Part shown: piece by piece, positions 3,501 to 25,803 of the stretch | Layout of the letters: each line of letters begins with the position of its first letter | Numbering within the stretch: position 1 is the first letter of the stretch | Program-made: the position numbers and the translations under genes | The notes under the pieces: model-generated | Databases searched by the model: none | Told to the model about the DNA's origin: nothing | What the model saw: the letters and a program-made list of their open reading frames with translations, nothing else | Source: Truepera sp. bin119 | GTDB taxonomy: Bacteria; Deinococcota; Deinococci; Deinococcales; Trueperaceae | Length of the DNA stretch: 64,000 nt | Assembly (NCBI GenBank): GCA_002239005.1 | Contig: MPNL01000010.1 | Coordinates: forward strand, 1-64,000 | Reading direction: 5' to 3'

Positions 3501-3765
3501 AATGTGGCTGCAGGCGGGTTGAACAACCGCCAACCAGTTCCCAGCTCTCTTGCTCCACCTAGTTCGAATGCTGCGGCGCTTCGAGGGATTCATGGCGAGG
3601 TCGTTTCATGGGACAACTTGCTGGAGCCGCGCATCCAAGATATAGTGAAAGCGCAAGGCATAATCCTGTGTCTTCCTGCTGTCGACCATAACCACTGCAC
3701 CCAGTTAGACCGAACAGTCGTGCGGTAATTGTGGTACTGTCTACCGTACAGTTGGGCTGGAAAAA

Positions 3766-3808
3766 GTGGGGCCGAGGGGGTTCGAACCCCTGACTCCCTG
3801 AATGCCAT
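3766..3808 (-). pseudogene. tRNA-Ala 3' half fragment (possible att site)
   Basis: Read on the minus strand, the stretch gives an anticodon-loop ATGGCAT, the 3' anticodon-stem strand, a T-arm with GGTTCGAA and a GC-rich 3' acceptor strand. It is very close to the intact tRNA-Ala(GGC) at 20461-20536 but stops within the anticodon arm. There is no 5' half and no encoded CCA. Truncated tRNA 3' ends of this kind are typical of tRNA-targeted integration sites; calling it an att remnant is inference. Confidence 0.65.
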
Positions 3809-3813
3809 ATGAA

Positions 3814-3883
3814 GCACGCAGGTCACCCTGTTTCACGATACCTCGTATTGTCGTGGGCGACACACCTAATCCTTCGGCATCCC
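3814..3883 (-). pseudogene. Excisionase-like helix-turn-helix remnant
   Basis: The minus strand reads WDAEGLGVSPTTIRGIVKQ followed by GDLRAS. This resembles the N-terminal helix-turn-helix of MerR-like excisionases, which run xLGVSxxTVxRxIxxGxLxA. A stop lies one codon before it, the frame has no start, and it runs straight into the tRNA fragment. It is therefore a short remnant of a larger gene, probably from an integrated element. The assignment rests on about 24 residues. Confidence 0.4.
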
Positions 3884-4092: not shown

Positions 4093-5016
4093 ATGTATAA
4101 ATTCGTGTTGCGGCGGATTCTGATCCTCGCCCCCCTGCTGATCATGATCTCGTTTCTGGTCTTCTCGATGATCCAGTTGGTCCCCGGCGACCCCGTCATC
4201 CTGATGTTGGGCGAGTACAGCGTCGCCAATGCGGAGAGCATCCAGGCGCTACGGGAACAACTCGGCTTCGACAAACCCTTCTACCTCCAGTACTGGAACT
4301 ACTTCACGTCCCTGGTGCAGGGGGATCTGGGCATGTCGATCCGCTCGAAGAAGCCGGTGTTGGAGCAGATCGTGCAGCGTCTGCCGAGCACCTTCGAACT
4401 GACCCTGGCGGGACTGGGCTTCGCGGTGGTGCTCGGGATCTTCCTCGGCGTCGTCTCGGCACTATACCATAACCGGTGGCCCGACCGGATGGCGGTCACC
4501 ATCGCCCTGTTGGGGATGTCGATTCCGAGTTTCTGGTTGGGCCTGATGCTGATCCTGATCTTTTCGGTCTACCTGCGCTGGCTCCCGGTGACGGGCACGA
4601 GCCTGAAAAGCTTAGTGCTGCCCGCTTTGACTCTGGGGTTGTGGGCAGCAGGCCCGATCGCCCGGTTCACGCGCTCGGGCCTACTCGAGGTCATGCGCCA
4701 GGACTATATCCGGACGGCACGCTCCAAGGGACTCCGCGAGCGCACCGTGGTGTGGCATCACATGTTGCGCAATGCGCTGATTCCGGTGGTCACCATTCTC
4801 GGCATCCGCTTCGGCCAGATCCTGGCGGGCACCATCATCATCGAGGCGGTGTTCGCCCGGCCCGGCCTCGGCCTGTATCTGCTTAACGCCATCGTGGCCA
4901 AGGACTTCCCGCTAGTCCAGGGGATCATCCTGTTCGTGGCCGCTGCCTACGTCATCGTCAATTCGCTGGTGGAGGTCACCTACGCAGCGATCGACCCGAG
5001 GATCGAGTATGGGTAG
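4093..5016 (+). CDS. Dpp/Opp-type ABC transporter permease (DppB-like)
   Basis: Inner-membrane permease of 307 residues, the usual length for DppB. It starts with a typical MYKFVLRRIL and a first membrane segment, has about six membrane spans, and shows the coupling loop with the EAA motif (RTARSKGLRERTVVWHHMLRN). It would pair with the permease starting 30 nt downstream to import peptides or related solutes, with the binding protein at 6034. No Shine-Dalgarno is obvious. No ATPase gene is found in the operon. Confidence 0.92.
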   Translation: MYKFVLRRILILAPLLIMISFLVFSMIQLVPGDPVILMLGEYSVANAESIQALREQLGFDKPFYLQYWNYFTSLVQGDLGMSIRSKKPVLEQIVQRLPSTFELTLAGLGFAVVLGIFLGVVSALYHNRWPDRMAVTIALLGMSIPSFWLGLMLILIFSVYLRWLPVTGTSLKSLVLPALTLGLWAAGPIARFTRSGLLEVMRQDYIRTARSKGLRERTVVWHHMLRNALIPVVTILGIRFGQILAGTIIIEAVFARPGLGLYLLNAIVAKDFPLVQGIILFVAAAYVIVNSLVEVTYAAIDPRIEYG

Positions 5017-5046
5017 GGTCTCGAGACCACCGCGACGGGTGAGATC

Positions 5047-5934
5047 GTGAGTCTGACACAGCCCCAGCCATCGCGGGGCGGAGAGCCCGCTAGGCCGGTC
5101 GGCCGCTGGCGGCTGCTCCTGCCCCAACTCCGGCGTCAACGCGTCGGTCTCGGCGCCGCCATCTTCCTGCTAGTGGTTGCGGCCAGCGGGATCCTCGCGC
5201 CCCAACTGGCGCCGTATGACCCGTTGCGAATCGACGCTCGCAACACTCTGGCCCCACCGAGCGGCGAACACTGGTTCGGCACCGACGATGTCGGTCGCGA
5301 CGTGTTCAGCCGCGTGATCTGGGGGGCCCGGATCTCCCTGCGGGTGGGGTTTGTCTCCGCCATCATCTCCACTGTGATCGGGGTGGTGCTCGGCCTCGTC
5401 AGCGGCTACTATGAGGGGGCCGTGGGGTTCGTGATTCTCCGGGCGATGGACCTGCTGCTGGCGTTTCCCGGCATCCTGCTGGCGCTGGCAATCGTCTCGA
5501 TCCTCGGATCGAGCATCGAAAACGTTATGATCGCGGTCGGCATCAGCGCCGTACCGACGTTTACCCGGGTCGTTCACGGGTCGGTGCTGTCGGTGAAGCA
5601 GAATGACTATGTCGAGGGGGCCCGTGCCCTCGGCTGCCGCGCTGTGGGCATGTTCCGCCGCCACATCTTTCCCAATGTGCTGGCCCCGGTGATCGTCCTC
5701 TTCACCCTGCAGATCGGTGCCGCCATCTTCTCGGCGTCCTCGCTGAGCTTCATCGGCCTCGGCGCTCAACCCCCCTCCCCAGAGTGGGGGGCGATGGTGA
5801 GCCGCGGCCGCTACGTCTTGAGCAACGCCTTCTGGATGTCGGCCTTCCCCGGCTTGGCCATCGCGCTGGTGGTTATCGCCATCAATGTCCTCGGCGATAG
5901 CCTGCGGGATCTTCTGGATCCCAGGATCCGCTAG
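5047..5934 (+). CDS. Dpp/Opp-type ABC transporter permease (DppC-like)
   Basis: Second permease subunit, 295 residues, GTG start. The N-terminal cytoplasmic arm is followed by a membrane segment, the DppC signature APYDPLRID and HWFGTDDVGRDVFSRVIWGA, then five more spans and the EAA loop EGARALGCRAVGMFRRHIF. It forms a heterodimer with the DppB-like subunit upstream. The C-terminus (DSLRDLLDPRIR) is typical of the family. Confidence 0.93.
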   Translation: MSLTQPQPSRGGEPARPVGRWRLLLPQLRRQRVGLGAAIFLLVVAASGILAPQLAPYDPLRIDARNTLAPPSGEHWFGTDDVGRDVFSRVIWGARISLRVGFVSAIISTVIGVVLGLVSGYYEGAVGFVILRAMDLLLAFPGILLALAIVSILGSSIENVMIAVGISAVPTFTRVVHGSVLSVKQNDYVEGARALGCRAVGMFRRHIFPNVLAPVIVLFTLQIGAAIFSASSLSFIGLGAQPPSPEWGAMVSRGRYVLSNAFWMSAFPGLAIALVVIAINVLGDSLRDLLDPRIR

Positions 5935-6033
5935 AGACGGTAACAGAGACAGCGGGAAAGCGAGGTGAGAGTTAAAACCGAAACATCACCTGTCCGAACC
6001 CGGACAAAAGCTAACGGTTTAGGAGGAGTACAA

Positions 6034-7599
6034 ATGAGGAAAGCGTTAGGCTTGATGCTGGCAATGCTGGTGCTGATGGGCTTCGCCCCGGCACAGGGTG
6101 AACTCACGGTCGCGATCCGGAATATCGACTACGACACCTTCGATCCGAACGTAAGCTCCTTCACCCAGGCAGCGTACGTCTTCCGGAACATCTTCGATCG
6201 CCTCATCTACATCGACGAGAACAGCGACTTAGTCCCCTGGCTGGCCACCTCCTGGGAGGCCAACGAGGACGCAACGGTGTGGACGCTTACGCTGCGCGAG
6301 GGCGTCACCTTCCACGACGGTACGCCCTTCAACGCCGAGGCGGTGGTATACAACTTCGAGCGGATGGTGGACCCGGCGACCCAGTCCCGCCAGGCTGGCC
6401 CGCTGTTGGGACCGTACGACCGGACCGAGATCATTGATGGGAACACGGTGGAGGTGCACTTCACCGAGCCCTACGCGCTGTTCAGCTTCGCCCTCAGCTC
6501 TCCGTTTATGGGGCTGGTCTCACCGGCCGCCGTGGAGGAGGCCGGGGACCGCTTCAATCAGGTCCTGATCGGTTCGGGCCCCTTCAAGTTCGTGAGCGAA
6601 AACCCCCACGTCGAGGTCGTGCTGGAGCAGAACCCCGACTACAACTGGGGACCGGAAGGGCTCCATGAGGGACCGGCCTACCTGGACCGGCTGGTGTTCA
6701 AGTTCATCCTCGAGGATGAGACCCGCCTGGCGACGCTGCTCTCGGGGGAGACCGACATCATCGATGAGATTCCCCCCGCTCAGGTCGACCGCATCCTGCA
6801 AGACCCCACCTTCGAAGTGTTCGGCGCACCCAAGGTTGGCATCGCCCGCAGCGTCTTCTTCAACACCCAAAAACCCCCCGTCGACGACATTCGAGTGCGC
6901 AGGGCCATCCTCCACGCCATCGACCGTGAAGCGATCAATATCGCCATCTTCAAAGGCGTATACCCGCTGGCCTCGGTGGTGCTGACGCCGGGCACCCGCT
7001 TCTACGACGCGACCCTCGAGGAGCTCTACCCGTACGATCCGGAAGGCGCTATCGCCCTGCTCGAGGAGGCTGGCTGGACCGAGATGAATCGGGACGGCTT
7101 CCGCGTCAAGGATGGGGAGGTGCTGCGCATCGACCACACCACCTTCCCGGGCTTCGTGGCCGAAGCGCCGGCCGAGATCATCCAGGCGCAACTCCGCGAT
7201 GTCGGCATCGACATGAGCATCACCGTGGTTCAGGGGGCCGCCTACCTCGACGGCATCATCTCCCCCGACAGCATCTACCACTCCTCCTTGATCGGAACCT
7301 ACAGCCCCGATCCCGGCCTCATCCTCAACCGGACCTTCAACTCCGCTGGGATGGGCACCACCAACTGGGCGCATTACGCCAACCCGGAACTCGACGCCCT
7401 GCTGCAGGAGGGGTTGCAGACCACCGATGAAGCTGCCCGGACCGAGATCTACGCCGCGGCGCAGAAGATCATCATGGAGAATGCCGTGGTCGCGCCCATC
7501 TACGCCAACGTCTCCATCTTCGGCGCCCAGGGCGGCGTGAGCGGCTTCAAGTTCGACCCGTACGCGCAGCCGGAGTTCTTCGACATTCGGGTCGAGTAG
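6034..7599 (+). CDS. Extracellular solute-binding protein, family 5
   Basis: Periplasmic or surface binding protein of 521 residues for a Dpp/Opp transporter. The start at 6034 follows AGGAGGAG at 6021-6028. Residues 1-21 form a signal peptide (RKALGLMLAMLVLMGFAPAQG). The family-5 signature is clear: LATSWE, TLREGVTFHDGTPFNAEAVVYNFERM, GSGPFKF and DIRVRRAILHAIDREAI. The ligand cannot be told from sequence; the neighbouring C-N hydrolases suggest a small amide, cyclic amide or peptide. Two hairpins follow the gene and may stabilise this highly expressed message. Confidence 0.93.
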   Translation: MRKALGLMLAMLVLMGFAPAQGELTVAIRNIDYDTFDPNVSSFTQAAYVFRNIFDRLIYIDENSDLVPWLATSWEANEDATVWTLTLREGVTFHDGTPFNAEAVVYNFERMVDPATQSRQAGPLLGPYDRTEIIDGNTVEVHFTEPYALFSFALSSPFMGLVSPAAVEEAGDRFNQVLIGSGPFKFVSENPHVEVVLEQNPDYNWGPEGLHEGPAYLDRLVFKFILEDETRLATLLSGETDIIDEIPPAQVDRILQDPTFEVFGAPKVGIARSVFFNTQKPPVDDIRVRRAILHAIDREAINIAIFKGVYPLASVVLTPGTRFYDATLEELYPYDPEGAIALLEEAGWTEMNRDGFRVKDGEVLRIDHTTFPGFVAEAPAEIIQAQLRDVGIDMSITVVQGAAYLDGIISPDSIYHSSLIGTYSPDPGLILNRTFNSAGMGTTNWAHYANPELDALLQEGLQTTDEAARTEIYAAAQKIIMENAVVAPIYANVSIFGAQGGVSGFKFDPYAQPEFFDIRVE

Positions 7600-7608
7600 G
7601 TCTTCACT

Positions 7609-7621
7609 GTGGGTCCCCCAC
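7609..7621 (+). repeat. Small hairpin after binding-protein gene
   Basis: GTGGG (7609-7613) and CCCAC (7617-7621) pair around a TCC loop, 10 nt after the binding-protein stop codon. No T-run follows. Confidence 0.45.
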
Positions 7622-7653
7622 GGCGGTGGGCCCAGCGTGAACCGTCGAGCATG

Positions 7654-7686
7654 TGCTAGGGGGGTGCCTGGCACGCCCCCTAGCGC
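7654..7686 (+). repeat. Strong GC hairpin after binding-protein gene
   Basis: CTAGGGGG pairs with CCCCCTAG, extended inward by TGC/GCA with one bulge, around a CTG loop. No T-run follows on either strand, so rather than a classical terminator it may be an mRNA 3'-end stabiliser that separates expression of the binding protein from downstream enzymes. That role is inference. Confidence 0.55.
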
Positions 7687-7767
7687 ACACTAGGACCGGG
7701 CGAGCCGACCCAGCCACCAGTCCCTGGGGCCGGGTTCGCCCGCGGCCCTCCTGCAGGAGGTTACGGA

Positions 7768-8958
7768 GTGAGTGTAAGGTCCGAACTGAGTGTGAGCGAA
7801 TACCGCCACCGCGGCGACCAGATGCGCGCGTACATGGAGGAGCAGGGCCTGGCGGGGCTCTGCATCTTCGGCGCCATGCGCATCTTCTACCTGAGCGGGT
7901 TCCACCACCTGGCCACCGAACGCCCCGTCGTTCTGGTGCTGCCGCTCGAGGGCGACCTCGCCCTGCTGGTGCCGCACCTGGAGGAGGAGAATATTCCCCT
8001 TCGCACCCCCCATATCGAGGAGGTCAGGGTCTACCGGGAGTACCCGGGGACCGAGCACCCGATGCACCACCTGGCGGGGTTGCTCCGCGACAAGGGGCTG
8101 GCGGAGGCGGCGCTGGGGGTCGACGCCGGCGGCTGGGGCGGCGGCTGGGGGTACCGCGGTCCCGAACTGGGCGAGGTGGTCCCGAAGGCGAGGCTCACCA
8201 ACGTACGCGACGTCATCGACGACCGGCGCATGATCAAGAGCCCGGCGGAGGTCGAACTGATCCGGCGGAGCGTGGAGTTCGGCAACGTCGCCCACAGCCT
8301 GCTGCAGGATTACACCGAGCCGGGTCTTTCGGAACTCGCCATCTCGATGCGCGCCGCAGCCGACGCGTCGCTCCACATGACCCGAGTGCTCGGCCCGGAT
8401 TGGGAACCGATGGGTTCGGCGGCGGCGTCGGCCGGCATCACCTCGGGCTTCAAGACGGCGCTGAATCACCGGCGGCCGGGCTCGCGCCGGATCCGCCGGG
8501 GCGACGTGATCCTCACCTACGCCAGCGCCGAGGTGGGAGGGTATGTCAGCGAGCTCGAGCGGATGTTCATCGTCGGGCCACCCAGCGAACGGCAGCGCAC
8601 CTATTTCGACTTGGAAGTCCAGGCGCAGGATGTCGCCCTGGCCAGCATCCGGCCGGGCAGCCCCTGCAGCGAGGTGGAGAGGGCCGTGAACGCGTTTTTG
8701 GAGGAGCATAACCTCCATCCGCTGACCCGCACCCACATCGGGCACGGCATCGGGATCGAAGGTCACGAGGCTCCCTTTCTCGATCTCGGGGATGACACCC
8801 CGATCGAGCCCGGCATGGTGCTCACGGTCGAACCCTGCCTGTTCCTGCCGGGCGAGGCGGGCTTCCGCCACTCCGACACGGTGCTGGTCACCGAGGAGGG
8901 CTGTGAGATGCTCACCTACTACCCCAGGGACATCGACAGCCTGACGGTCGACATCTGA
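7768..8958 (+). CDS. M24-fold hydrolase, creatinase-like (metal ligands lost)
   Basis: Pita-bread-fold protein of 396 residues with a creatinase N-terminal domain (about 1-145) and an M24 C-terminal domain (150-396). GTG start with GCAGGAGG 8 nt upstream. Canonical M24 metallopeptidases carry Asp, Asp, His, Glu, Glu. Here the region of the first Asp reads LTYASAEV, that of the second reads YVSELERMF (Glu), and the last Glu region reads FRHSDTVLV, while the His of HIGHGIGIEGHE and the Glu of LTVEP remain. The GDVILTYASAEVGGYVSELE stretch aligns with creatinase GDILSLNTF...YYTALERTLF. This points to a metal-free C-N hydrolase (creatinase or ectoine-hydrolase type) rather than a prolidase; the substrate is unknown. 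Confidence 0.8.
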   Translation: MSVRSELSVSEYRHRGDQMRAYMEEQGLAGLCIFGAMRIFYLSGFHHLATERPVVLVLPLEGDLALLVPHLEEENIPLRTPHIEEVRVYREYPGTEHPMHHLAGLLRDKGLAEAALGVDAGGWGGGWGYRGPELGEVVPKARLTNVRDVIDDRRMIKSPAEVELIRRSVEFGNVAHSLLQDYTEPGLSELAISMRAAADASLHMTRVLGPDWEPMGSAAASAGITSGFKTALNHRRPGSRRIRRGDVILTYASAEVGGYVSELERMFIVGPPSERQRTYFDLEVQAQDVALASIRPGSPCSEVERAVNAFLEEHNLHPLTRTHIGHGIGIEGHEAPFLDLGDDTPIEPGMVLTVEPCLFLPGEAGFRHSDTVLVTEEGCEMLTYYPRDIDSLTVDI

Positions 8959-9012
8959 TGAGCCGGGTGTTCGTCCGCACGGGTAAGCGCGTGCGGGAAG
9001 TGGGGGCCAGCG

Positions 9013-10023
9013 ATGAATGAGACCCTGTTCCAGCGCTCGATGACGCTCCCCGATGAGCTTCTCGAGGGTGCGATCGACATTCACGTCCACGCCGGCCCCC
9101 ACCTCAGGTCCAGTCCGCGGCGGGTCGACCCCTTCGAGGCCGCCCGCCAAGCGCGCGAGGCGGGGATGCGGGCGCTGGTGTTCATGGACGTGTTCAAGGA
9201 GAGTGCCGGTACCGCCTGGTTGGTGCAGCGGCAGGTTCCCGGTATCGAAGTGTTCGGCGGTATCATCCTCAGCACCAACCACGGAGGGATAAACCCGCGC
9301 GCGGTCAAGACCGCCCTCAACTACGGCGCGGGGGCCAAATTCGTGAGCTTCGGGGCGCACTCCACCCACTTCAAGGTCAGTACCGAGGGCCGCCTCGTCG
9401 ACGGAAAGCCGGTCCTCTTTCAGGATCTCTACCCCAAGTATGCCGCGCAGGAACTGGACCGCTCGATCCGCATCCCGCTCGAGGACCCCATCCCCGAGGA
9501 GCTGAGTGCCGTTCTCGAGCTCATCGCCGCTCACCCTCACATCTACCTCAACACCGGTCACGTGTCCGGCGAGGAGGCGCTGCGGCTGGTGGAACTGGCG
9601 GCCCGCTACGGCATCGAGCGGGTGCTCATCGCCGGGCTGGCGGTCGAGGAGCTGTCGCTCGAACAGCAGCGGGCCGCTGCGGCCGGGGGCGCTCATCTGG
9701 AGCGGTCGCTCGGGCAGTATATCGGCACCGAGGGCATCCCCAAGACCCACTACTATGTCGAGCCGGAGTATATGGACGAACTCATCTACGATCCTGCCGT
9801 CCGCAAGGGCAAGCACGGTGGCCTGCTGGGCCTAAAGGAGCAGATCCGCACCGTAGGTCCCGAGCACATCGTGCTCAGCACCGATTACGGGGTGCGTTCG
9901 CTTCCGCCCCCCGTCGAGGGCATGCGGCAGCTGCTCGCCTGCCTGTTAGACATGGAGCTGAGCAACGAGGAGATACGACTGATGACCGCTCACAATCCCG
10001 CCCGTCTCCTGGGATTACGCTGA
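9013..10023 (+). CDS. DUF6282 family putative metal hydrolase (copy 1)
   Basis: Protein of 336 residues resembling the amidohydrolase-like DUF6282 family. It has an N-terminal HxH motif (GAIDIHVHAGPH), a later conserved His (YLNTGHVSGEEA) and a C-terminal Asp (VLSTDYG), the ligand set expected of a metal-dependent TIM-barrel hydrolase. No reaction is established for the family as far as I know. The stop TGA overlaps the ATG of the next gene (10023). A paralogue lies at 11219-12250, so the two copies flank the amidohydrolase; they may be subunits of one enzyme or act on related substrates. Confidence 0.85.
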   Translation: MNETLFQRSMTLPDELLEGAIDIHVHAGPHLRSSPRRVDPFEAARQAREAGMRALVFMDVFKESAGTAWLVQRQVPGIEVFGGIILSTNHGGINPRAVKTALNYGAGAKFVSFGAHSTHFKVSTEGRLVDGKPVLFQDLYPKYAAQELDRSIRIPLEDPIPEELSAVLELIAAHPHIYLNTGHVSGEEALRLVELAARYGIERVLIAGLAVEELSLEQQRAAAAGGAHLERSLGQYIGTEGIPKTHYYVEPEYMDELIYDPAVRKGKHGGLLGLKEQIRTVGPEHIVLSTDYGVRSLPPPVEGMRQLLACLLDMELSNEEIRLMTAHNPARLLGLR

Positions 10024-11222
10024 TGGGCACCACCCTCATCACCAACGGGCAGCTCATCGACGGCACTGGAGCGCCGCCGCGCCCCTTTGCCGGGGTGCTG
10101 ATCCGCGACGCCACCATCGACGGGATCTACCCGCAGCTGCCCCCAGGAGGTGTTCAGACCGACGCCACCATCGACCTCGGCGGGGCTACCCTGCTGCCTG
10201 GGCTATGGGACGCTCACGCTCACCTGGGGATGGTCTTTCCCCAGCCTGCGCTCCACAAGACTCCGCACCACGAACTCCCGGCCGACCGCACCGTGCGCTG
10301 CGGCCGGGCGGCCATGGAAACCCTCGACCACGGCGTCACCAGCATCCGGGTGGTCGGTGAGGCCGACTACGTCGACGTGGCCTGGAAGAGAGCATTCGAG
10401 GCAGGGCTCTTTACCGGCCCGCGGCTGTTCGTGTGCGGTCGCCCCCTGATCGCTACCGGCGGCCACGGCTGGCAGAGCGGTGCCGGCGTCGAGGTCGACG
10501 GTCCGGCGGAGGTCCGCAAGGCCGCCCGGGAGCAACTCAGGCGGGGAGCGGACCAGATCAAGCTCATGATCACCGGTGGGGTGGCGTCGCCGACCGAGAC
10601 CATGTTCGAGTCGCAGATGACGATGGATGAGATCGAAGCGGCGGTGGAGATCGCTGGCCTCAAAGGGCGCAAGGTCGCCGCCCACGTGGGGGGGCCCCTG
10701 GGTGCCAAGATGGCTGTCAGGGCCGGGGTGGCCAGCATCGAGCACGGATATCACCTCGACGACGAAGCCATCGAGTTGATGGTCGAGCACGGCACCACCT
10801 ACGTCCCCACCCTGGCGGTGACGCAGGACACCGAGTTCGTGATGAACAACAATGCCCCCTTCGCCATCGCCAAGATCCAGGCGGCGGCCGAGCGACACCT
10901 AGCGAGCTTCCAGAAGGCGCTCGCCGCCGGTGTCACCATCGCCACCGGGGAGGACATGCCGGTGCCATTTGCCGAGCGGATCATCCCGGAGATCGAGACG
11001 ATGGTGGCCTGCGGGATGGAGCCCATGGCGGCGATCGTCGCCTCGACCAAGAACGCCGCGGAACTCTGCGACGTTGCCGACCGCCTCGGCACCGCCGAAG
11101 TGGGCAAGGTCGCCGACCTGATCGCGGTGAGGGGAGATCCCAGCGAGAACATTTCTCGGCTGAACGACCTGCTGCTGGTCTTCAAGGCGGGAGAGTTGGT
11201 GGTAGACAGGAGGGAGTCATGA
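10023..11222 (+). CDS. Amidohydrolase family protein (imidazolonepropionase-like)
   Basis: Metal-dependent hydrolase of 399 residues. The composite beta domain starts the chain (TTLITNGQLIDGTG). The HxH site is GLWDAHAHLG, a Lys of the barrel lies in QIKLMITGG, further His residues are in KVAAHVGG and SIEHGYHL, and the last Asp is probably in ATGEDMPVP. The family cleaves cyclic or linear amides, including Xaa-Pro dipeptides. It overlaps the preceding gene by one base and the following gene by four (ATGA), so all three are translated as a coupled unit. Confidence 0.88.
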   Translation: MGTTLITNGQLIDGTGAPPRPFAGVLIRDATIDGIYPQLPPGGVQTDATIDLGGATLLPGLWDAHAHLGMVFPQPALHKTPHHELPADRTVRCGRAAMETLDHGVTSIRVVGEADYVDVAWKRAFEAGLFTGPRLFVCGRPLIATGGHGWQSGAGVEVDGPAEVRKAAREQLRRGADQIKLMITGGVASPTETMFESQMTMDEIEAAVEIAGLKGRKVAAHVGGPLGAKMAVRAGVASIEHGYHLDDEAIELMVEHGTTYVPTLAVTQDTEFVMNNNAPFAIAKIQAAAERHLASFQKALAAGVTIATGEDMPVPFAERIIPEIETMVACGMEPMAAIVASTKNAAELCDVADRLGTAEVGKVADLIAVRGDPSENISRLNDLLLVFKAGELVVDRRES

Positions 11223-12250
11223 TTCTGCCGGCGGGCCGCTCGTTCGAACTGACCCGGGAGCTGTTGCGAGGCGCGATCGACATCCACGTCCACGCCGGGC
11301 CTCACCTTTTCAGCAGCCCGCGCCGGGTGGATCCCTTCGAAGCCGCGACCGAGGCTCGCGATGCGGGCATGCGCGCCATCGTGTTCATGGACGTCTTCGA
11401 GATGAGCAACGGTACCGCCTGGCTGGTCAGCCGCGCCGTGCCCGACATGATCACCTTCGGTGGGCTCATCCTCAACACCGTGTACGGGGGGATGAATCCT
11501 CGAGCGGTCAAGACCGCCATCCACTACGGGGCGGGCGCCAAGTTCGTGAGTTTCGGGGCGCACTCGACCTACTTCCAGGCCTCGCGCGAGGGCCGGGTGG
11601 TGGACGGAAAGTTCGTGCCCCTCAGCGAACTCTACCCCGAGTTCAAACGTGAGGAGTTGGATCGCTGCATCCGCATCCCGGAAGGCGATCCCACCCCGGA
11701 GTTGGCTGAGATCCTCAGGCTGCTCGCCGACAACCCACATATGTACCTCAACACCGGCCATGTCTCGGTCGAGGAGGCGACGCGGCTAGTCGAGCTGGCG
11801 GAGCACTACGGCATCGCCAAGGTGCTGGTCGCCAGTTCGGTGAGCAAGATCGCCACCCTCGAACAGCTCGAGGTGATGGCCGAGCGGGGGGCTTTCATCG
11901 AGTTCACCCTCGCCGCCTACACCCACACCACGCCGATCCCCAAGACCCACTACTACGTCGAGCGGGAGTACGTCTCGATCGACGAGGGCATGGAGGACGC
12001 GCCCAAAGGGGGGGTGAAGCTGGTCGCCGAGCAGATCCGGGCGCTGGGGGCGGAGCGCTGCATCATCGCCACCGATCTCGGCGTGTACACGCTGCCCACC
12101 CCGGTAGAGGGGTTGCGGGAATTCATCGCCTGTCTGTTGGACCTGGGCATCCCCGCGGAGGACATCCGCACCCTGACCAAGACCAACCCCGAGAGGCTGT
12201 TGGGTCTGCCACCCGAGGCCGCTACTCCAGATCCGGCACCCACGAACTAA
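11219..12250 (+). CDS. DUF6282 family putative metal hydrolase (copy 2)
   Basis: Paralogue of the gene at 9013, 343 residues, with the same HxH (AIDIHVHAGPH), His (YLNTGHVSVEEA) and Asp (IIATDLG). The two are similar along the whole length (for example INPRAVKTALNYGAGAKFVS against MNPRAVKTAIHYGAGAKFVS). The start codon overlaps the amidohydrolase stop. GGAGGG lies just upstream. The tail after residue 330 (AATPDPAPTN) is divergent. Duplication followed by retention of both copies around one amidohydrolase suggests a heteromeric enzyme or two steps of a pathway. Confidence 0.85.
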   Translation: MILPAGRSFELTRELLRGAIDIHVHAGPHLFSSPRRVDPFEAATEARDAGMRAIVFMDVFEMSNGTAWLVSRAVPDMITFGGLILNTVYGGMNPRAVKTAIHYGAGAKFVSFGAHSTYFQASREGRVVDGKFVPLSELYPEFKREELDRCIRIPEGDPTPELAEILRLLADNPHMYLNTGHVSVEEATRLVELAEHYGIAKVLVASSVSKIATLEQLEVMAERGAFIEFTLAAYTHTTPIPKTHYYVEREYVSIDEGMEDAPKGGVKLVAEQIRALGAERCIIATDLGVYTLPTPVEGLREFIACLLDLGIPAEDIRTLTKTNPERLLGLPPEAATPDPAPTN

Positions 12251-12251
12251 C

Positions 12252-13667
12252 GTGGCCCCGTCGCGGCTGAGCATCTGGCAAGCCCACGTCGGAATCGGGG
12301 ACCCGCACGTGTCCAGCGACGACAAGAGCCGGCTCAGCATCCTGGCGTCGCTGGTCGAGCCGCTGGTGCGGCGCGCGCCGGGGGGCTGGTACGCCCCCTG
12401 CCTGGCCGCCAACTGGAGCTTGAGCGAAGATGCCCGCAGCTGGACCTTTGCCCTGCGCGAGGGCGTGACCTTTCACGACGGCACTGGGCTCGAGGCCGGC
12501 GACGTAGCGGCCAGCCTGGCACGGGTACGCGACGAGGAGATCGGGGGAGAACTGGGGACCCAAGGGGTGTACCAGAGCTACCTCGCGGGCAGCGTCATCG
12601 AGGCGCTGGACGCGACCACCGTGCGGCTGGCGACGCCGGAGCCGGTGGCCGATCTGCTCGATCTGCTGGTCGAACTGCCGATCCTGCCCCGAGGCGGCCC
12701 GGCGGGAGGACTCGTCGGCACCGGGCCCTACCGGCTGCTCGAGGCGGATGCATCGGGGGTGGTGACCGAAGCCCACGACGGGTACTGGGGTCGAAGGCCG
12801 ATCGCCCAGCGGCTGCACTGGCGCGGGCAGGCCGACCCTGCCGAGCGCGTCCGCGCCCTGTTGGCTGGCGAGGCCGACCTCATCAGCGGGGTCCCCGTCG
12901 AGCTCCACCGAGAGGTCGAGGAGGCCAGCGAGGTAGAACTCGTCAGCACCGCTAGCAGCGTCTGCAGCACCTTCATGTGCAACCTGACCGCTGGACCCTG
13001 CACGGACCGGCGCCTGCGGCAGGCGTTGAACTACGCCCTGGACGTCCCCGCCCTCATCGAGGAGGTGATGGCGGGGAGCGCCGAACTGCTGACCGGACCC
13101 TTCACCTCACTCCACCTCGGTTTCGACCCGGCGGTACCCGCCTATCCCTTCGATCCGCAACGGGCCCGCGCCTTGCTCGCCGACGCCGGGTACCGGGACG
13201 GGCTCGCGCTCACCTTCGACATCCCCCGCGTGCTCCCCGACGAGGCTCCCCGGTTGGCCGCCCTCATGAAGGCGCAGTACGCCGAAGTGGGGATCGACCT
13301 CGAGGTGATCGAACATGGGAACCGACCCGCCTACGCAGAGATGGTCCGCCATAGAGAGATGCACGATGCCTGCTGTTTCGACTCGAGCCCGCTCAGCACC
13401 TACCGCTTGCTGCGGGAGAAGTTCCACAGCGGTGTCCAAGGGCCCTGGTGGCTGGGGTATCGCAACGCCGCGGTGGACGATCTCATCGACCGAGCCCAGG
13501 CGACCGCCGAGAGCGAGGAGCGGCAGCGCCTCTACCGCCGCGTTCACCACCTGGTGCGGAACGATGCCCCCTGGGTGTTCCTGTATAGCCCGAGGCTTTA
13601 CTGGGGGCGCGGCGCGCGGGCTGGAGACTGGCAGCCCCAGGTGGACGGGTTGATCGGTTTTGCCTGA
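12252..13667 (+). CDS. Family-5 solute-binding protein lacking a signal peptide
   Basis: Protein of 471 residues with the family-5 fold: VEPLVRR, LAANWSLSEDARSWTFALRE, GVTFHDGT, VGTGPYRLLE and DRRLRQALNYALDVPALIEE. GTG start two bases after the preceding stop. It has no hydrophobic N-terminus; the chain starts at APSRLSIWQAHVGIGD, near where mature binding proteins usually start. It may be a cytoplasmic ligand sensor or chaperone comparable to the C-terminal domain of SgrR, or may have lost its signal peptide. Its place among the catabolic enzymes rather than next to the permeases favours an intracellular role, but this is inference. Confidence 0.85.
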   Translation: MAPSRLSIWQAHVGIGDPHVSSDDKSRLSILASLVEPLVRRAPGGWYAPCLAANWSLSEDARSWTFALREGVTFHDGTGLEAGDVAASLARVRDEEIGGELGTQGVYQSYLAGSVIEALDATTVRLATPEPVADLLDLLVELPILPRGGPAGGLVGTGPYRLLEADASGVVTEAHDGYWGRRPIAQRLHWRGQADPAERVRALLAGEADLISGVPVELHREVEEASEVELVSTASSVCSTFMCNLTAGPCTDRRLRQALNYALDVPALIEEVMAGSAELLTGPFTSLHLGFDPAVPAYPFDPQRARALLADAGYRDGLALTFDIPRVLPDEAPRLAALMKAQYAEVGIDLEVIEHGNRPAYAEMVRHREMHDACCFDSSPLSTYRLLREKFHSGVQGPWWLGYRNAAVDDLIDRAQATAESEERQRLYRRVHHLVRNDAPWVFLYSPRLYWGRGARAGDWQPQVDGLIGFA

Positions 13668-13703
13668 CCCGGGGTGTGGCTCACGGAAGGAGGAACCCAC
13701 AGC

Positions 13704-15074
13704 GTGACGATCTATGACCTAGTGGTAACCGGGGGGATGCTGGTCCTCCCCGGCGGCCCGGTTCGAGCGGACCTCGCGGTGAATGACGGACGCATCGTCG
13801 CCCTCGGGAGTGGGTTCAGGGGGACAGAAACGGTGAGGGCGGACCACCTGCTAGTGCTTCCCGGACTGGTCGACCCTCACGTCCACCCGATCCACGCCGA
13901 GAGCTACCGTTCCGCTTCCGAGGCGGCGATCCACGGCGGAGTCACCACCACCCTGCACCACCTCTACGTTCCCCCCGACCAGGACCCGGTCGCGTTCTTC
14001 GAAACGGCGGTGCCGGAGGCGGAGGCGCTGTCGCTTACCGATTTCGCCTTCCACGTGCGGCTCAACGACCTCCACCGCACCCAGCACGCCATCGCCGAAC
14101 TGGTTCGGCGTGGTAGCCCCACCTTCAAGCTGTTTCTGGCGTACGGGGCCCGCGGCATCATGGTCCAGGATGACGAGGCGCTGCTCGCCATGCAGGCGGC
14201 GGTGGCGGCGGGGGGAACCCTGCTGTTTCACGCCGAGAACGGCCCGCTGACGGAACTGCTCGAGGGGCAGGCTCGCGAACAGGGGCTGACGTCGCTACTC
14301 GATTACTTCGCCACCCGGCCAGCCGAGCTCGAGGCGGAGGCGGTGCAGCGGCTCCTCACCATGGTCGGGCTCAGTGGTTGCCCCAGCTACTTCGTGCACC
14401 TGACCTGTCGGGCGTCCGTCCGGCTGGTGGCCGACGCCAAGCTCGAGGGCTTGCCGATCCATGCCGAAACCTGTCCCCACTACCTGTTGCTGACCGCGGC
14501 CGAGGCTGCGGGGCTCGGGCCGCGGGCCAAGATGGCGCCGCCCCTGCGGGAGGAGGCCGATCGTGAGGCGTTGTGGCGAGCGCTCGCTGCCGGCCTCATC
14601 GATGCGGTCGGCAGCGACCACAGCGCCTTTTCGCCCGAAGAGAAGGAGGGCCTCGCCAGCGTCTTCGATGCCGGCTACGGTGTCCCCGGCATCGCCACCA
14701 TGTTCCCGCTGCTGTACGATCGCGGCGTGAGGCGGGATCGGGTAACGCTTGCGCGGCTCGTCGATGCCACCGCCGCCCGCCCCGCTGAAATCCTCGGACT
14801 GGCGGACCGCAAGGGCCGCTTGGCGGTGGGTACCGATGCGGACTTCGTACTGTTCGATCCTGAGGAGGATTTCGTCATCGATGACACGTCGGAGCGGGGC
14901 AATGCCTATTACAGCCTCTACTCGGGGTGGAGCGGGAAGGGCGTGGTTCGATCGGTCTACCTCAGGGGGGAGCCGAGGCTCGTCGAGGGGGAGTTGCTAG
15001 ACGCTCCCCAGAAGGGGCGCTTCGTCCGGCGTGGGCCTGCCGGCACCGCCATCGACCCGCGACCGGACCGCTGA
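13704..15074 (+). CDS. Dihydropyrimidinase/hydantoinase-type cyclic amidohydrolase
   Basis: Hydrolase of 456 residues of the dihydroorotase/dihydropyrimidinase family, opening cyclic amides such as hydantoins or dihydropyrimidines. The start GTG at 13704 follows GGAAGGAGG. Ligands are all present: HxH in LVDPHVHPIH, the carboxylated Lys in GSPTFKLFLAYG, His in LLFHAENG and PIHAETCPHYL, and Asp in AVGSDHSAF. It could also be an allantoinase or a dihydroorotase-like enzyme; the hydrolase neighbours favour amide or hydantoin catabolism. Confidence 0.87.
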   Translation: MTIYDLVVTGGMLVLPGGPVRADLAVNDGRIVALGSGFRGTETVRADHLLVLPGLVDPHVHPIHAESYRSASEAAIHGGVTTTLHHLYVPPDQDPVAFFETAVPEAEALSLTDFAFHVRLNDLHRTQHAIAELVRRGSPTFKLFLAYGARGIMVQDDEALLAMQAAVAAGGTLLFHAENGPLTELLEGQAREQGLTSLLDYFATRPAELEAEAVQRLLTMVGLSGCPSYFVHLTCRASVRLVADAKLEGLPIHAETCPHYLLLTAAEAAGLGPRAKMAPPLREEADREALWRALAAGLIDAVGSDHSAFSPEEKEGLASVFDAGYGVPGIATMFPLLYDRGVRRDRVTLARLVDATAARPAEILGLADRKGRLAVGTDADFVLFDPEEDFVIDDTSERGNAYYSLYSGWSGKGVVRSVYLRGEPRLVEGELLDAPQKGRFVRRGPAGTAIDPRPDR

Positions 15075-15077
15075 GCC

Positions 15078-16085
15078 ATGGGGTTCTGCCTACTAGTCCA
15101 GCCGATCCACGAGGTCGGTTCCCAAGTGCTGGCAGAGGCGGGGATCGAGACGCGCCTCGCAAGCGCCAGCGACATGTCCACGGTCGCCCAGGAGATCCCG
15201 GGGGCGGTGGCGGTGATCACCCGCAACGCCGGCCTGTCACGGGAGGCCATCGCGGCTGCTGAGGATCTGCGGGTGATCGGCAACCACGGCACCGGCTACG
15301 ATCCGATCGATGTCCCCTTCGCCACCGAGCGGGGCGTGCCCGTAGTCAGCACCCCCGAAGCGAATGTCCAGTCGGTAGCGGAGCTCGCCATCAGTCTGAT
15401 GCTGGCAGTGGCCAAACGCCTGCTGCCGGCAGATGAGGCAACCCGCAAGGGCCTGTTTACCTTCAAGTACCATCACCCCACCGGCGAGATTGCCGGCAAG
15501 ACGGTGGGGATCGTCGGGTACGGCAGGATCGGGCGCCGCACCGCTGCGATCCTAAGAGATGCCTTCGGAATGCGGGTCCTAGCTTACTCGCCGTCGGCGG
15601 ACGCGGAGGAACTCCGCGCCCACGGCGTCACCAAGATCGATCGCCTCCACGATCTCTTGCGCGCCAGCGATGTCGTGTCGCTGCACCTCCCCCTCACCGA
15701 GAAGAGCGAGGGGCTCATCGGCGCAGCGGAACTCGCCTGCCTGAAACCGTCGGCGCTCCTGATCAATACCTCGCGCGGCCCGGTGATCGACGAGCCAGCA
15801 CTGGTCCAAGCGCTGCAGCGGCACCAACTGGCGGGGGCCGGACTCGACGTCTACGTCTCCGAGGCGATGGACGAGGACGATCCCCTGTTGGCGCTCGAAA
15901 ACACCGTTCTCACACCGCACATCGGCGGCTCCTCCCAGGAGGCGCTCGAGCGCACCGCCGTTCAGGTTGCCGAGCAGGTCATCGCAGTGTTGCGTGACGA
16001 GCACCCCACTAACCTGGTGAACCCCGAGGTGTGGTCCCGGAGGCGACGTGTAGCGCAGTCAGGGTCGTCGCTGAACCCCGGATGA
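15078..16085 (+). CDS. D-2-hydroxyacid dehydrogenase, NAD-dependent
   Basis: Oxidoreductase of 335 residues of the D-isomer-specific 2-hydroxyacid dehydrogenase family (phosphoglycerate or hydroxypyruvate reductase type). It shows GNHGTGYDPIDV, the nucleotide-binding VGIVGYGRIGRR at about residue 140, catalytic Arg in NTSRGPVIDE, a Glu in the DEDDPL region and catalytic His in LTPHIGGSS. It starts 3 nt after the hydrolase stop, so it belongs to the same operon and probably reduces an oxoacid released by the pathway. A terminator lies about 500 nt downstream. Confidence 0.9.
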   Translation: MGFCLLVQPIHEVGSQVLAEAGIETRLASASDMSTVAQEIPGAVAVITRNAGLSREAIAAAEDLRVIGNHGTGYDPIDVPFATERGVPVVSTPEANVQSVAELAISLMLAVAKRLLPADEATRKGLFTFKYHHPTGEIAGKTVGIVGYGRIGRRTAAILRDAFGMRVLAYSPSADAEELRAHGVTKIDRLHDLLRASDVVSLHLPLTEKSEGLIGAAELACLKPSALLINTSRGPVIDEPALVQALQRHQLAGAGLDVYVSEAMDEDDPLLALENTVLTPHIGGSSQEALERTAVQVAEQVIAVLRDEHPTNLVNPEVWSRRRRVAQSGSSLNPG

Positions 16086-16237
16086 TCCTTGCCCTGGAGT
16101 GCGGTGTGGCAGCGGGTTGGGCAGGCTTGGCCTAACATTATCCACCGCTAGACCTCCACCTGTCCCTCCGCCATGGAGAAGGTCGACAGCTCGAGCGTGG
16201 GCGATATTCTCACCCCGGACGTGGACTGGGATCCGGG

Positions 16238-16478
16238 GAGAAGGACGGCTGGACCGTACCTGGTCGAGCCAGATCGATGGGCAGCGAAGACACCAATACC
16301 TGCTGCCGCTTCCCAACGGACCCCCGCACCTTCATCGAGAGCTGGAGCCTTGCCGGTTCCACCCACCACTTCGCCCTGGGTGGGGCACATCGCGCACCAG
16401 ATTGAGCTGGTGACCTAGTGCTGGGGGATCGAGTACGTCACCGACCCGATGTACCGGCGGCCTCCGCACATCAGGTGA
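16238..16478 (+). pseudogene. Remnant of L-fucose/L-arabinose isomerase-type C-terminus
   Basis: In one frame the stretch reads TNTCCRFPTDPRTFIESWS and LAGSTHHFALG. After a frameshift near 16388 it continues VGHIAHQIELVT, a stop codon, then CWGIEYVT. The joined reading matches the C-terminal pattern of the fucose/arabinose isomerase family (W-x-x-A-G-x-x-HHFALGVGHVA...GIE). There is no N-terminal part. It is therefore a truncated, frameshifted relic of a sugar-isomerase gene, possibly once linked to the xylulokinase-type sugar genes elsewhere. The family assignment rests on about 60 residues. Confidence 0.6.
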
Positions 16479-16583
16479 CCCGAAACCGACATCGGTTAGG
16501 CACGGCTGGCGGGGAAGTCCTTACGGAAGTGGAAGCTGGCAGGGGCCGGATTGAGTCCTGTGCCTTCATCTGCCGTTCCAAGC

Positions 16584-16616
16584 GGAACCCCCGGAATGAA
16601 TCCGGGGGTTCCTTTT
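16584..16616 (+). terminator. Intrinsic terminator
   Basis: A perfect 12-bp stem, GGAACCCCCGGA with TCCGGGGGTTCC, around an ATGAA loop, followed by TTTT. It would end the long catabolic operon read from the left. The opposite strand lacks an equal T-run. Confidence 0.88.
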
Positions 16617-20460: not shown

Positions 20461-20536
20461 TGGTGGAGCCGAGGGGATTCGAACCCCTGACCTCCTGAAT
20501 GCCATTCAGGCGCGCTCCCAACTGCGCCACGGCCCC
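20461..20536 (-). tRNA. tRNA-Ala(GGC)
   Basis: 76 nt on the minus strand with an encoded CCA. The acceptor stem GGGGCCG/CGGCTCC contains a G3-U70 pair, the identity element of alanine tRNA. The anticodon arm is CCTGA-ATGGCAT-TCAGG with anticodon GGC, and the T-loop has GGTTCGAA. The D-arm has the expected GTTGGGAGC pattern. Confidence 0.96.
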
Positions 20537-25737: not shown

Positions 25738-25803
25738 CATAATATAGTAGTGTCGACAGTTGACAGCAGCAGGGTATCCTGTCGAGTGTCTGGGAGGGGC
25801 GGT

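What the first reader, a model, noticed from the sequence alone, without database searches (positions are those of the whole stretch)
4093..16085. Dedicated amide/cyclic-amide uptake and degradation operon with creatinase-like and DUF6282 enzymes
Seen: twelve kilobases on one strand with overlaps or short gaps join two Dpp permeases, a binding protein, a creatinase-like M24 protein, DUF6282-amidohydrolase-DUF6282, a signal-less binding protein, a hydantoinase-type hydrolase and a 2-hydroxyacid dehydrogenase. Known: each family cleaves C-N bonds or handles oxoacids. Inference: a pathway that imports a small cyclic or N-substituted amide, opens it stepwise and reduces an oxoacid product. I know of no described pathway with this gene set.
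Basis: partly seen in the sequence, partly recalled or inferred. Interest (0 to 1): 0.75.

Follow-up and report, generated by a model that had tools for sequence, protein, structure and literature searches.

The report
Mobile ring-amide uptake and breakdown operon
A ten-gene bacterial operon, probably acquired on a mobile island, looks built to import a small ring-shaped nitrogen compound (most likely hydantoin-like) and hydrolyse it; versions of it occur in several unrelated phyla and carry an unusual binding protein that stays inside the cell.

Summary
The gene run is real: ten co-directional genes (4093-16085) with short gaps or overlaps, no internal terminator above chance, and a strong hairpin terminator at 16584. 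The genome is a Trueperaceae (Deinococcota) relative. The core gene set recurs with DUF6282 in other phyla. A second Trueperaceae genus has nearly the same operon. Caldilineae have the transporter, M24 and binding-protein genes at 50-66% identity, a few kb from DUF6282 + hydantoinase + N-carbamoylase. Rhodothermia have DUF6282, signal-less binding protein, AroM (racemase fold), a hydantoinase nearest ErtD, and an aldolase-like gene. Hydantoinase genes lie near 16 of 47 long-type DUF6282 loci and 0 of 33 control loci. A ring-opening catabolic pathway of hydantoin-utilisation type is the best reading; the substrate is unproven. Not supported: oxoacid reduction (the dehydrogenase is unique to this copy), a complete dedicated importer (no ATPase genes), and C-N cleavage by DUF6282 (amidohydrolase fold, mononuclear-type site; decarboxylation equally open). 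New here: the second family-5 binding protein lacks a signal peptide in all 16 copies examined, so a cytoplasmic carrier or sensor is conserved. The M24 enzyme has lost three of five metal ligands, suggesting creatinase-type chemistry. The operon lies between a tRNA-Ala gene and a partial copy of its 3' end.

The parts
4093..5016 (+). DppB/OppB-type ABC permease
   Evidence: PF00528 2e-42, just passes NCBIfam Opp2B cut-off 351/350; 62% identical in other Trueperaceae, 64-65% in Caldilineae
5047..5934 (+). DppC/OppC-type ABC permease
   Evidence: PF00528 + OppC_N; 63-66% in Trueperaceae/Caldilineae operons
5965..7599 (+). secreted family-5 solute-binding protein (SBP1), with a Sec-type leader from MRKALGLMLAMLVLMGFAPAQG
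   Evidence: PF00496 4e-87; hydrophobic N-terminus, max KD15 2.04
7644..7696 (+). strong RNA hairpin in the 168-nt gap between SBP1 and M24, no T-tract; role unknown (stabiliser or attenuator)
   Evidence: z -2.86 for the whole gap
7768..8958 (+). M24 creatinase/prolidase-fold protein lacking three of five metal ligands (D to Y, D to E, E to S)
   Evidence: PF00557 + PF01321; pairwise alignment with prolidases; E262 and the FRHSD motif invariant in 7 relatives, and none of them restores the missing Asp
9013..10023 (+). DUF6282 protein a, diverged paralogue
   Evidence: PF19799 2e-45; 60% to copy b; branches outside the clade that holds b
10023..11222 (+). amidohydrolase (Amidohydro_1), prolidase / Cc2672 / ochratoxinase-like N-acyl-amino-acid hydrolase group
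   Evidence: PF01979 1.5e-42; nearest solved: Xaa-Pro dipeptidase 2qs8, Cc2672 3mtw, ochratoxinase 4c5y; 64% in G094
11219..12250 (+). DUF6282 protein b, the widely conserved long form; amidohydrolase-superfamily barrel
   Evidence: PF19799 7e-45; up to 79% identity in Bacteroidota and 77% in Bathyarchaeota; AF2 pLDDT 87.2, pTM 0.89; fold search
12252..13667 (+). family-5 solute-binding protein without signal peptide (slSBP2), predicted cytoplasmic
   Evidence: PF00496 2.6e-62; no leader in 16 of 16 copies; AF2 pLDDT 87.5, TM 0.87 to 5u4o
13674..15074 (+). hydantoinase/dihydropyrimidinase-family cyclic amidohydrolase, catalytic HxH, K, H, H, D kept
   Evidence: best NCBIfam TIGR02033 298 bits, below cut-off 393; aligned to D-hydantoinase 1nfg
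15078..16085 (+). D-2-hydroxyacid dehydrogenase, lineage-specific addition
   Evidence: PF02826 3.6e-57; no counterpart at 47 related loci
16584..16612 (+). intrinsic-terminator-like hairpin, 12 pairs then TTTT; likely end of the unit
3766..3808 (.). partial copy of the tRNA-Ala 3' end (43 bp, 91%), likely att remnant and left edge of the island
20461..20536 (-). intact tRNA-Ala(GGC), right edge of the island

Best explanation
A horizontally acquired catabolic operon for a small cyclic ureide or cyclic amide, most likely a 5-substituted hydantoin or a dihydropyrimidine-like ring, working like a hydantoin-utilisation cluster. SBP1 and the two Dpp-type permeases import the compound, powered by ATPases encoded elsewhere (inferred). 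The hydantoinase-type enzyme opens the ring to an N-carbamoyl or N-acyl product (inferred from family and intact metal site). The metal-less M24 enzyme and the prolidase/Cc2672-like amidohydrolase remove the remaining C-N-linked group, in place of the N-carbamoylase that some relatives encode (inferred). The DUF6282 pair catalyses a further metal-dependent step on the same carbon skeleton, hydrolytic or decarboxylating (fold predicted, reaction unknown). slSBP2 binds a substrate or intermediate inside the cell as a carrier or sensor (lack of export signal shown, role inferred). The dehydrogenase is a local add-on.
For: Operon anatomy. Near-complete synteny in a second Trueperaceae genus: DppBC, SBP1, M24, amidohydrolase, DUF6282, slSBP2, then AroM, hydantoinase, aldolase-like, P450, GntR, M20. 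Caldilineae: DppC-SBP1-M24-slSBP2-DppB at 50-66% identity, in the same region as DUF6282 and hydantoinase + M20 carbamoylase, which passes TIGR01879 375/204 and is nearest ErtE. Rhodothermia: DUF6282, slSBP2, AroM, hydantoinase and a DHDPS-family gene in a row, the hydantoinase nearest ErtD, hydantoin-5-propionate amidohydrolase, 473 bits but below cut-off 650. Hydantoin racemase (PF01177-type) with a hydantoinase near DUF6282 in Syntrophaceae and Fermentithermobacillaceae. Hydantoinase near 16/47 long-type versus 0/33 remote-type DUF6282 loci, p=9e-5; AroM/racemase 12/47 versus 0/33; slSBP2 14/47 versus 0/33 (loci are not independent, but hydantoinase hits span several phyla). AroM and hydantoin racemase genes and Dpp-type transporters are reported enriched in non-CDPS cyclodipeptide-oxidase clusters (PMC11055893).
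Against: The window's own hydantoinase is only 34% identical to the G094 one and falls below every NCBIfam equivalog cut-off. The window genome has no AroM, and its run holds no N-carbamoylase. Long-type DUF6282 also occurs without any of these neighbours in several Bathyarchaeota and in Acidimicrobiia. No substrate evidence exists. The ATPase assignment is inference.
Confidence: 0.5

Rival explanations
1. Scavenging of modified or cyclic di/tripeptides or N-acyl amino acids: Dpp uptake, then M24 and the prolidase-like amidohydrolase as dipeptidases, with the hydantoinase-family enzyme opening diketopiperazine rings.
For: Dpp-type transporter and SBP5; M24 nearest solved structures are prolidases; amidohydrolase nearest is Xaa-Pro dipeptidase / Cc2672; AroM/racemase/Dpp genes occur in cyclodipeptide-oxidase-like clusters (PMC11055893).
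Against: M24 has lost three of five prolidase metal ligands, and none of its relatives restores them; relatives carry an ErtD-like hydantoinase and a carbamoylase; no cyclodipeptide-oxidase gene was recognised among the annotated neighbours (not searched for specifically).
Confidence: 0.25
2. DUF6282 is an independent enzyme with its own widely useful reaction; its place in this run is opportunistic and it takes no part in a ring-opening pathway.
For: Up to 77-79% identity across phyla and domains, higher than its operon partners at about 40-66%; solitary in several Bathyarchaeota and in Acidimicrobiia.
Against: Overlapping reading frames and paired copies in the window; direct DUF6282-slSBP2 adjacency in Deinococcota, Bacteroidota and Nitrospinota.
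Confidence: 0.15
3. A composite island: two or three unrelated catabolic units assembled next to a tRNA-Ala integration site, without one pathway.
For: tRNA-Ala partial repeat at 3766-3808; gene content varies strongly among relatives; dehydrogenase and P450 each in a single locus.
Against: Gaps of -4 to 54 nt except one; the transporter-M24-slSBP2-DUF6282 core recurs in two phyla.
Confidence: 0.1

Closest known systems
Bacterial hydantoin-utilisation (hyu) clusters: hydantoinase, N-carbamoylase, often hydantoin racemase and a transporter (PMC3546935)
   Same: Hydantoinase-family enzyme beside transporter genes; relatives add AroM/hydantoin racemase and an N-carbamoylase
   Different: The window lacks racemase and carbamoylase in the run; adds a DUF6282 pair, metal-less M24, prolidase-like amidohydrolase and a signal-less binding protein; uses a Dpp-type importer without its own ATPases
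Ergothioneine-utilisation enzymes ErtD/ErtE (NCBIfam NF058538/9, NF058540)
   Same: Best NCBIfam match of the hydantoinase in Rhodothermia and G094 is ErtD and of the Caldilineae carbamoylase is ErtE
   Different: All below curated cut-offs; no ErtA-C-like gene was recognised next to DUF6282 (not searched for specifically); the window's hydantoinase scores better with D-hydantoinase
Non-CDPS cyclodipeptide-oxidase-like clusters rich in AroM, hydantoin racemase, DUF917 and Dpp transporters (PMC11055893)
   Same: AroM/racemase, Dpp transporters and peptidase genes in related DUF6282 operons
   Different: No cyclodipeptide oxidase or DUF917 recognised here; DUF6282 is not mentioned in the paper library at all
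AmiC-type cytoplasmic amide sensors (Peripla_BP_6 fold) of amidase operons (own knowledge)
   Same: A binding-protein fold kept in the cytoplasm beside amide-hydrolysing enzymes; Rhodothermia operons even carry a signal-less Peripla_BP_6 protein
   Different: slSBP2 is a family-5 (Dpp/Opp) fold, not Peripla_BP_6; no AmiR-like partner seen

Membership tests
hydantoin-utilisation cluster | hydantoinase/dihydropyrimidinase-family enzyme with intact metal site | tested here: met
   Window HYD keeps HxH, K, H, H, D against 1nfg; family assignment broad only
hydantoin-utilisation cluster | N-carbamoyl-amino-acid hydrolase in the cluster | tested here: not met
   None in the run; present in Caldilineae relatives
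hydantoin-utilisation cluster | hydantoin racemase or AroM | tested here: not met
   No PF01177 or AroM in the run, no AroM in the genome; PF01177 elsewhere in the genome not searched; present in relatives
hydantoin-utilisation cluster | growth on or turnover of hydantoins | not testable with these tools
   needs enzyme assays
D-hydantoinase TIGR02033 / ErtD NF058539 equivalogs | score over the curated cut-off | tested here: not met
   298/393 and 234/650 for the window protein; G094 466/650 for ErtD
M24 metallopeptidase (prolidase/aminopeptidase P) | five metal ligands D, D, H, E, E | tested here: not met
   D to Y, D to E, H kept, E kept, E to S, read from the prolidase alignments; none of the seven aligned proteins has the missing ligands
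creatinase / ectoine hydrolase (non-metal M24) | creatinase-type fold without metal site; activity on creatine or ectoine | tested here: inconclusive
   Fold and loss of metal ligands fit; matches 1chm and DoeA but less than prolidases; DoeA models 75-87 bits against cut-offs of 575-613
Dpp/Opp ABC importer | two permeases plus family-5 binding protein | tested here: met
Dpp/Opp ABC importer | cognate DppD/DppF ATPases in the operon | tested here: not met
   none in the run; eight oligo_HPY domains on four other contigs
DUF6282 (PF19799) | score over gathering cut-off | tested here: met
   155 and 154 bits against 26.8
amidohydrolase superfamily (DUF6282) | TIM barrel with HxH on strand 1, His after strand 5, Asp on strand 8 | tested here: met
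   H23, H25, H181, D286 invariant in 44 of 44; K108 is R in 11 of 44, so no conserved bridging lysine; Foldseek hits PTE, renal dipeptidase, Amidohydro_2 enzymes, TM about 0.5; model only
family-5 extracellular solute-binding protein (slSBP2) | fold | tested here: met
   PF00496; TM 0.87 to 5u4o
family-5 extracellular solute-binding protein (slSBP2) | export signal | tested here: not met
   0 of 16 copies; several have fewer than 10 open residues upstream

The most novel reading that the evidence does not exclude
A mobile catabolic module, found in several bacterial phyla, in which a cytoplasmic family-5 solute-binding protein carries or senses a hydantoin-class metabolite and passes it to DUF6282, a new metal-dependent enzyme that replaces or extends the N-carbamoylase step; DUF6282 itself reaches into Bathyarchaeota.
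Probability: 0.2. Interest if true: 0.7.

Novelty: new variant of a known kind. Interest (0 to 1): 0.5.

Why it matters
The natural role of hydantoinases is described as unclear (PMC3546935), and DUF6282 has no published function in the library searched. A compact operon that pairs both with a dedicated importer and a binding protein gives a defined set of purified proteins and ligands with which to find a physiological substrate. The signal-less family-5 binding protein is unusual: this fold is normally exported, and a conserved intracellular lineage tied to catabolic genes would be a new use of it.

Tried and rejected
Riboswitch or known RNA upstream: nothing credible in Rfam (the tmRNA hit at 3764-3828 is the tRNA fragment, 11.7 bits against 47). 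Internal promoter/terminator splitting the run: only chance-level sites. Recent tandem duplication of DUF6282: rejected, copy a branches outside the clade that holds copy b (96 SH-aLRT), although a has a long branch and sits with a very long Kribbella branch. Bridging carboxylated lysine in DUF6282: rejected, R in 11 of 44. PDB sequence relatives of DUF6282: none. Empty-site comparison for the island: the left-flank sensor kinase has no close relative in 38 other family genomes, so no clean empty site was obtained. Integrase inside the island: none found on this contig. Ergothioneine pathway membership: best-hit resemblance only, cut-offs missed. Literature on signal-less family-5 binding proteins: two searches gave nothing direct.
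Full report
OBSERVATION. The window holds ten co-directional genes at 4093-16085. Pfam and NCBIfam give: two Dpp/Opp-type permeases, a family-5 binding protein, an M24 creatinase/prolidase-fold protein, DUF6282, an Amidohydro_1 protein, DUF6282 again, a second family-5 binding protein, a hydantoinase/dihydropyrimidinase-family protein and a D-2-hydroxyacid dehydrogenase. Gaps are 30, 30, 168, 54, -1, -4, 1, 6 and 3 nt. Promoter- and terminator-like sites are at the shuffled rate; the one strong terminator-like hairpin lies after the run at 16584-16612. The 168-nt gap before M24 folds unusually well (z -2.9) but has no T-tract.

SETTING. The window is contig 59 of a 3.2-Mb genome in 91 contigs. 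A relative of the same family (G094) has its locus on a 176279-base contig, matching CALMXZ010000016.1, titled uncultured Trueperaceae, so the window is from Trueperaceae, Deinococcota (inference from this match). Only the window genome and G094 of 39 genomes searched in the family hold this type of DUF6282; three others hold a different, higher-scoring type.

MOBILE CONTEXT. A 43-bp, 91% copy of the 3' end of the tRNA-Ala(GGC) gene at 20461-20536 lies at 3766-3808 in the same orientation. The same stretch of the tRNA 3' end occurs as isolated partial copies in other genomes of the family (e.g. G091, G092, G093, G095, G098), as expected of an integration hotspot. The operon and a two-gene ABC exporter lie between the two copies. 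G+C is 0.567 left of the repeat, 0.663 in the operon and 0.628 right of the tRNA. No integrase was found on this contig. An acquired island is therefore likely but not proven; the 91% identity suggests an old or foreign att copy.

CONSERVATION. A scan of 84,980 species genomes with the DUF6282 alignment gave 47 loci of a long-type subfamily (mostly 58-79% identity, Kribbella 50%) in Bacteroidota/Rhodothermia, Bathyarchaeota, Chloroflexota, Acidimicrobiia, Bipolaricaulota, Spirochaetes, Clostridia, Thermodesulfobacteriota, Nitrospinota, Sumerlaeota and others, and 33 remote loci at about 28-34%. Neighbour genes were compared by tblastn and clustering. G094: DppB, DppC, SBP1, M24, amidohydrolase, DUF6282, slSBP2, AroM, hydantoinase, DHDPS-family, P450, GntR, M20. 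Caldilineae (four genomes): DppC-SBP1-M24-slSBP2-DppB with 50-66% identity to the window; in the loci long enough to show it, DUF6282 and hydantoinase + M20 carbamoylase lie a few kb further on. Rhodothermia: SBP, DppB, DppC, a signal-less Peripla_BP_6 protein, an AstE/AspA-like protein, DUF6282, slSBP2, AroM, hydantoinase, DHDPS-family, with ABC-ATPase genes divergently placed. Bathyarchaeota (three loci): DUF6282 a few genes from an M20 and an M24 (about 40% to the window's). Counts, long type versus remote type: hydantoinase 16/47 v 0/33 (Fisher p=9e-5), AroM/racemase 12 v 0, slSBP2 14 v 0, Dpp permeases 14 v 0, M24 8 v 0; the 2-hydroxyacid dehydrogenase 0 v 0. These loci are related by descent (nine are close Bacteroidota), so the p-values overstate independence; but the hydantoinase link recurs in Deinococcota, Bacteroidota, Chloroflexota, Thermomicrobiota, Thermodesulfobacteriota and Bacillota.

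ENZYMES. The window hydantoinase keeps the metal-site residues of D-hydantoinase in alignment with 1nfg, but is below all equivalog cut-offs and only 34% identical to the G094 enzyme. The G094 and Rhodothermia enzymes match ErtD, hydantoin-5-propionate amidohydrolase, best (466 and 473 bits, cut-off 650), and the Caldilineae M20 protein matches ErtE best (414, cut-off 520) and passes TIGR01879 (375/204). [quoted passage not shown] M24: against prolidases the two metal Asp are Y and E and the last Glu is S, while His and one Glu remain; none of the seven aligned proteins from three phyla has the missing ligands. I take this as creatinase-type, metal-free chemistry (inference; ligand identities from general knowledge of M24). 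The amidohydrolase is nearest Xaa-Pro dipeptidase, Cc2672 and ochratoxinase. DUF6282b has no PDB sequence relative; its model (pLDDT 87.2, pTM 0.89) matches phosphotriesterase, renal-dipeptidase-like proteins and Amidohydro_2 decarboxylases/lactonases at TM about 0.5. H23, H25, H115, H181, E228 and D286 are invariant in 44 sequences while K108 is R in 11. That pattern suggests a mononuclear site, compatible with hydrolysis or decarboxylation (inference).

THE INTRACELLULAR BINDING PROTEIN. slSBP2 has a full family-5 fold (pLDDT 87.5; TM 0.87 to 5u4o). None of 16 copies has a hydrophobic leader; in several the open frame upstream is under 10 residues, so one is impossible; SBP1 controls show clear leaders. 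Fourteen copies share conserved DPH, CFDSSPxST, EKFHSG and GPWW motifs (one of them is a partial sequence). A more distant standalone copy (33%) in another genome of the same class as the Caldilineae is also leaderless.

MECHANISM. Shown: gene order, families, conservation, loss of the leader, loss of M24 metal ligands. Inferred: import by SBP1/DppBC with ATPases from elsewhere (eight oligo_HPY domains on four other contigs); ring opening by the hydantoinase; further C-N cleavage by M24 and the amidohydrolase; a DUF6282 step; ligand carriage or sensing by slSBP2. The dehydrogenase is best seen as a local addition.

VERDICT. It is wrong or unproven on the oxoacid step, on the self-contained importer and on DUF6282 as a C-N hydrolase. 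I file it as a new variant of the hydantoin-utilisation kind in how it probably works, not as a proven member, because carbamoylase and racemase are missing from the window copy and no activity is known.

Noticed in passing
window 3766-3808 and 20461-20536: Partial tRNA-Ala 3' copy and intact tRNA-Ala bracket a 16.7-kb segment; similar partial copies in other genomes of the family point to an integration hotspot at this tRNA.
   Followed up: partly
window 12252-13667; L023, L024-L034, L065, L068, L123, L165, L166: A lineage of family-5 solute-binding proteins without signal peptides, with conserved CFDSSPxST and EKFHSG motifs.
   Followed up: yes
L024, L028 (7902-8972) and other Rhodothermia loci: A Peripla_BP_6 protein without signal peptide in the same operons, recalling AmiC-type cytoplasmic amide sensors.
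   Followed up: partly
L029 2584-3840, L031 7873-9192: An S-adenosylhomocysteine-hydrolase-like gene sits inside the Rhodothermia version of the operon, after slSBP2.
   Followed up: no
L048, L061: Genes that look like indolepyruvate oxidoreductase subunits near a hydantoin racemase and DUF6282 suggest amino-acid fermentation downstream in anaerobes.
   Followed up: no
L053 9283-11264: A Bathyarchaeota contig also carries two tandem DUF6282 genes, separate from the window's pair in the tree.
   Followed up: no
window 16100-16480: Sequence between the operon and its terminator looks like a decayed gene fragment (reading suggests a sugar-isomerase C-terminus, not tested).
   Followed up: no
window 25750-27264: Another Amidohydro_1 protein, outside the island.
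   Followed up: no
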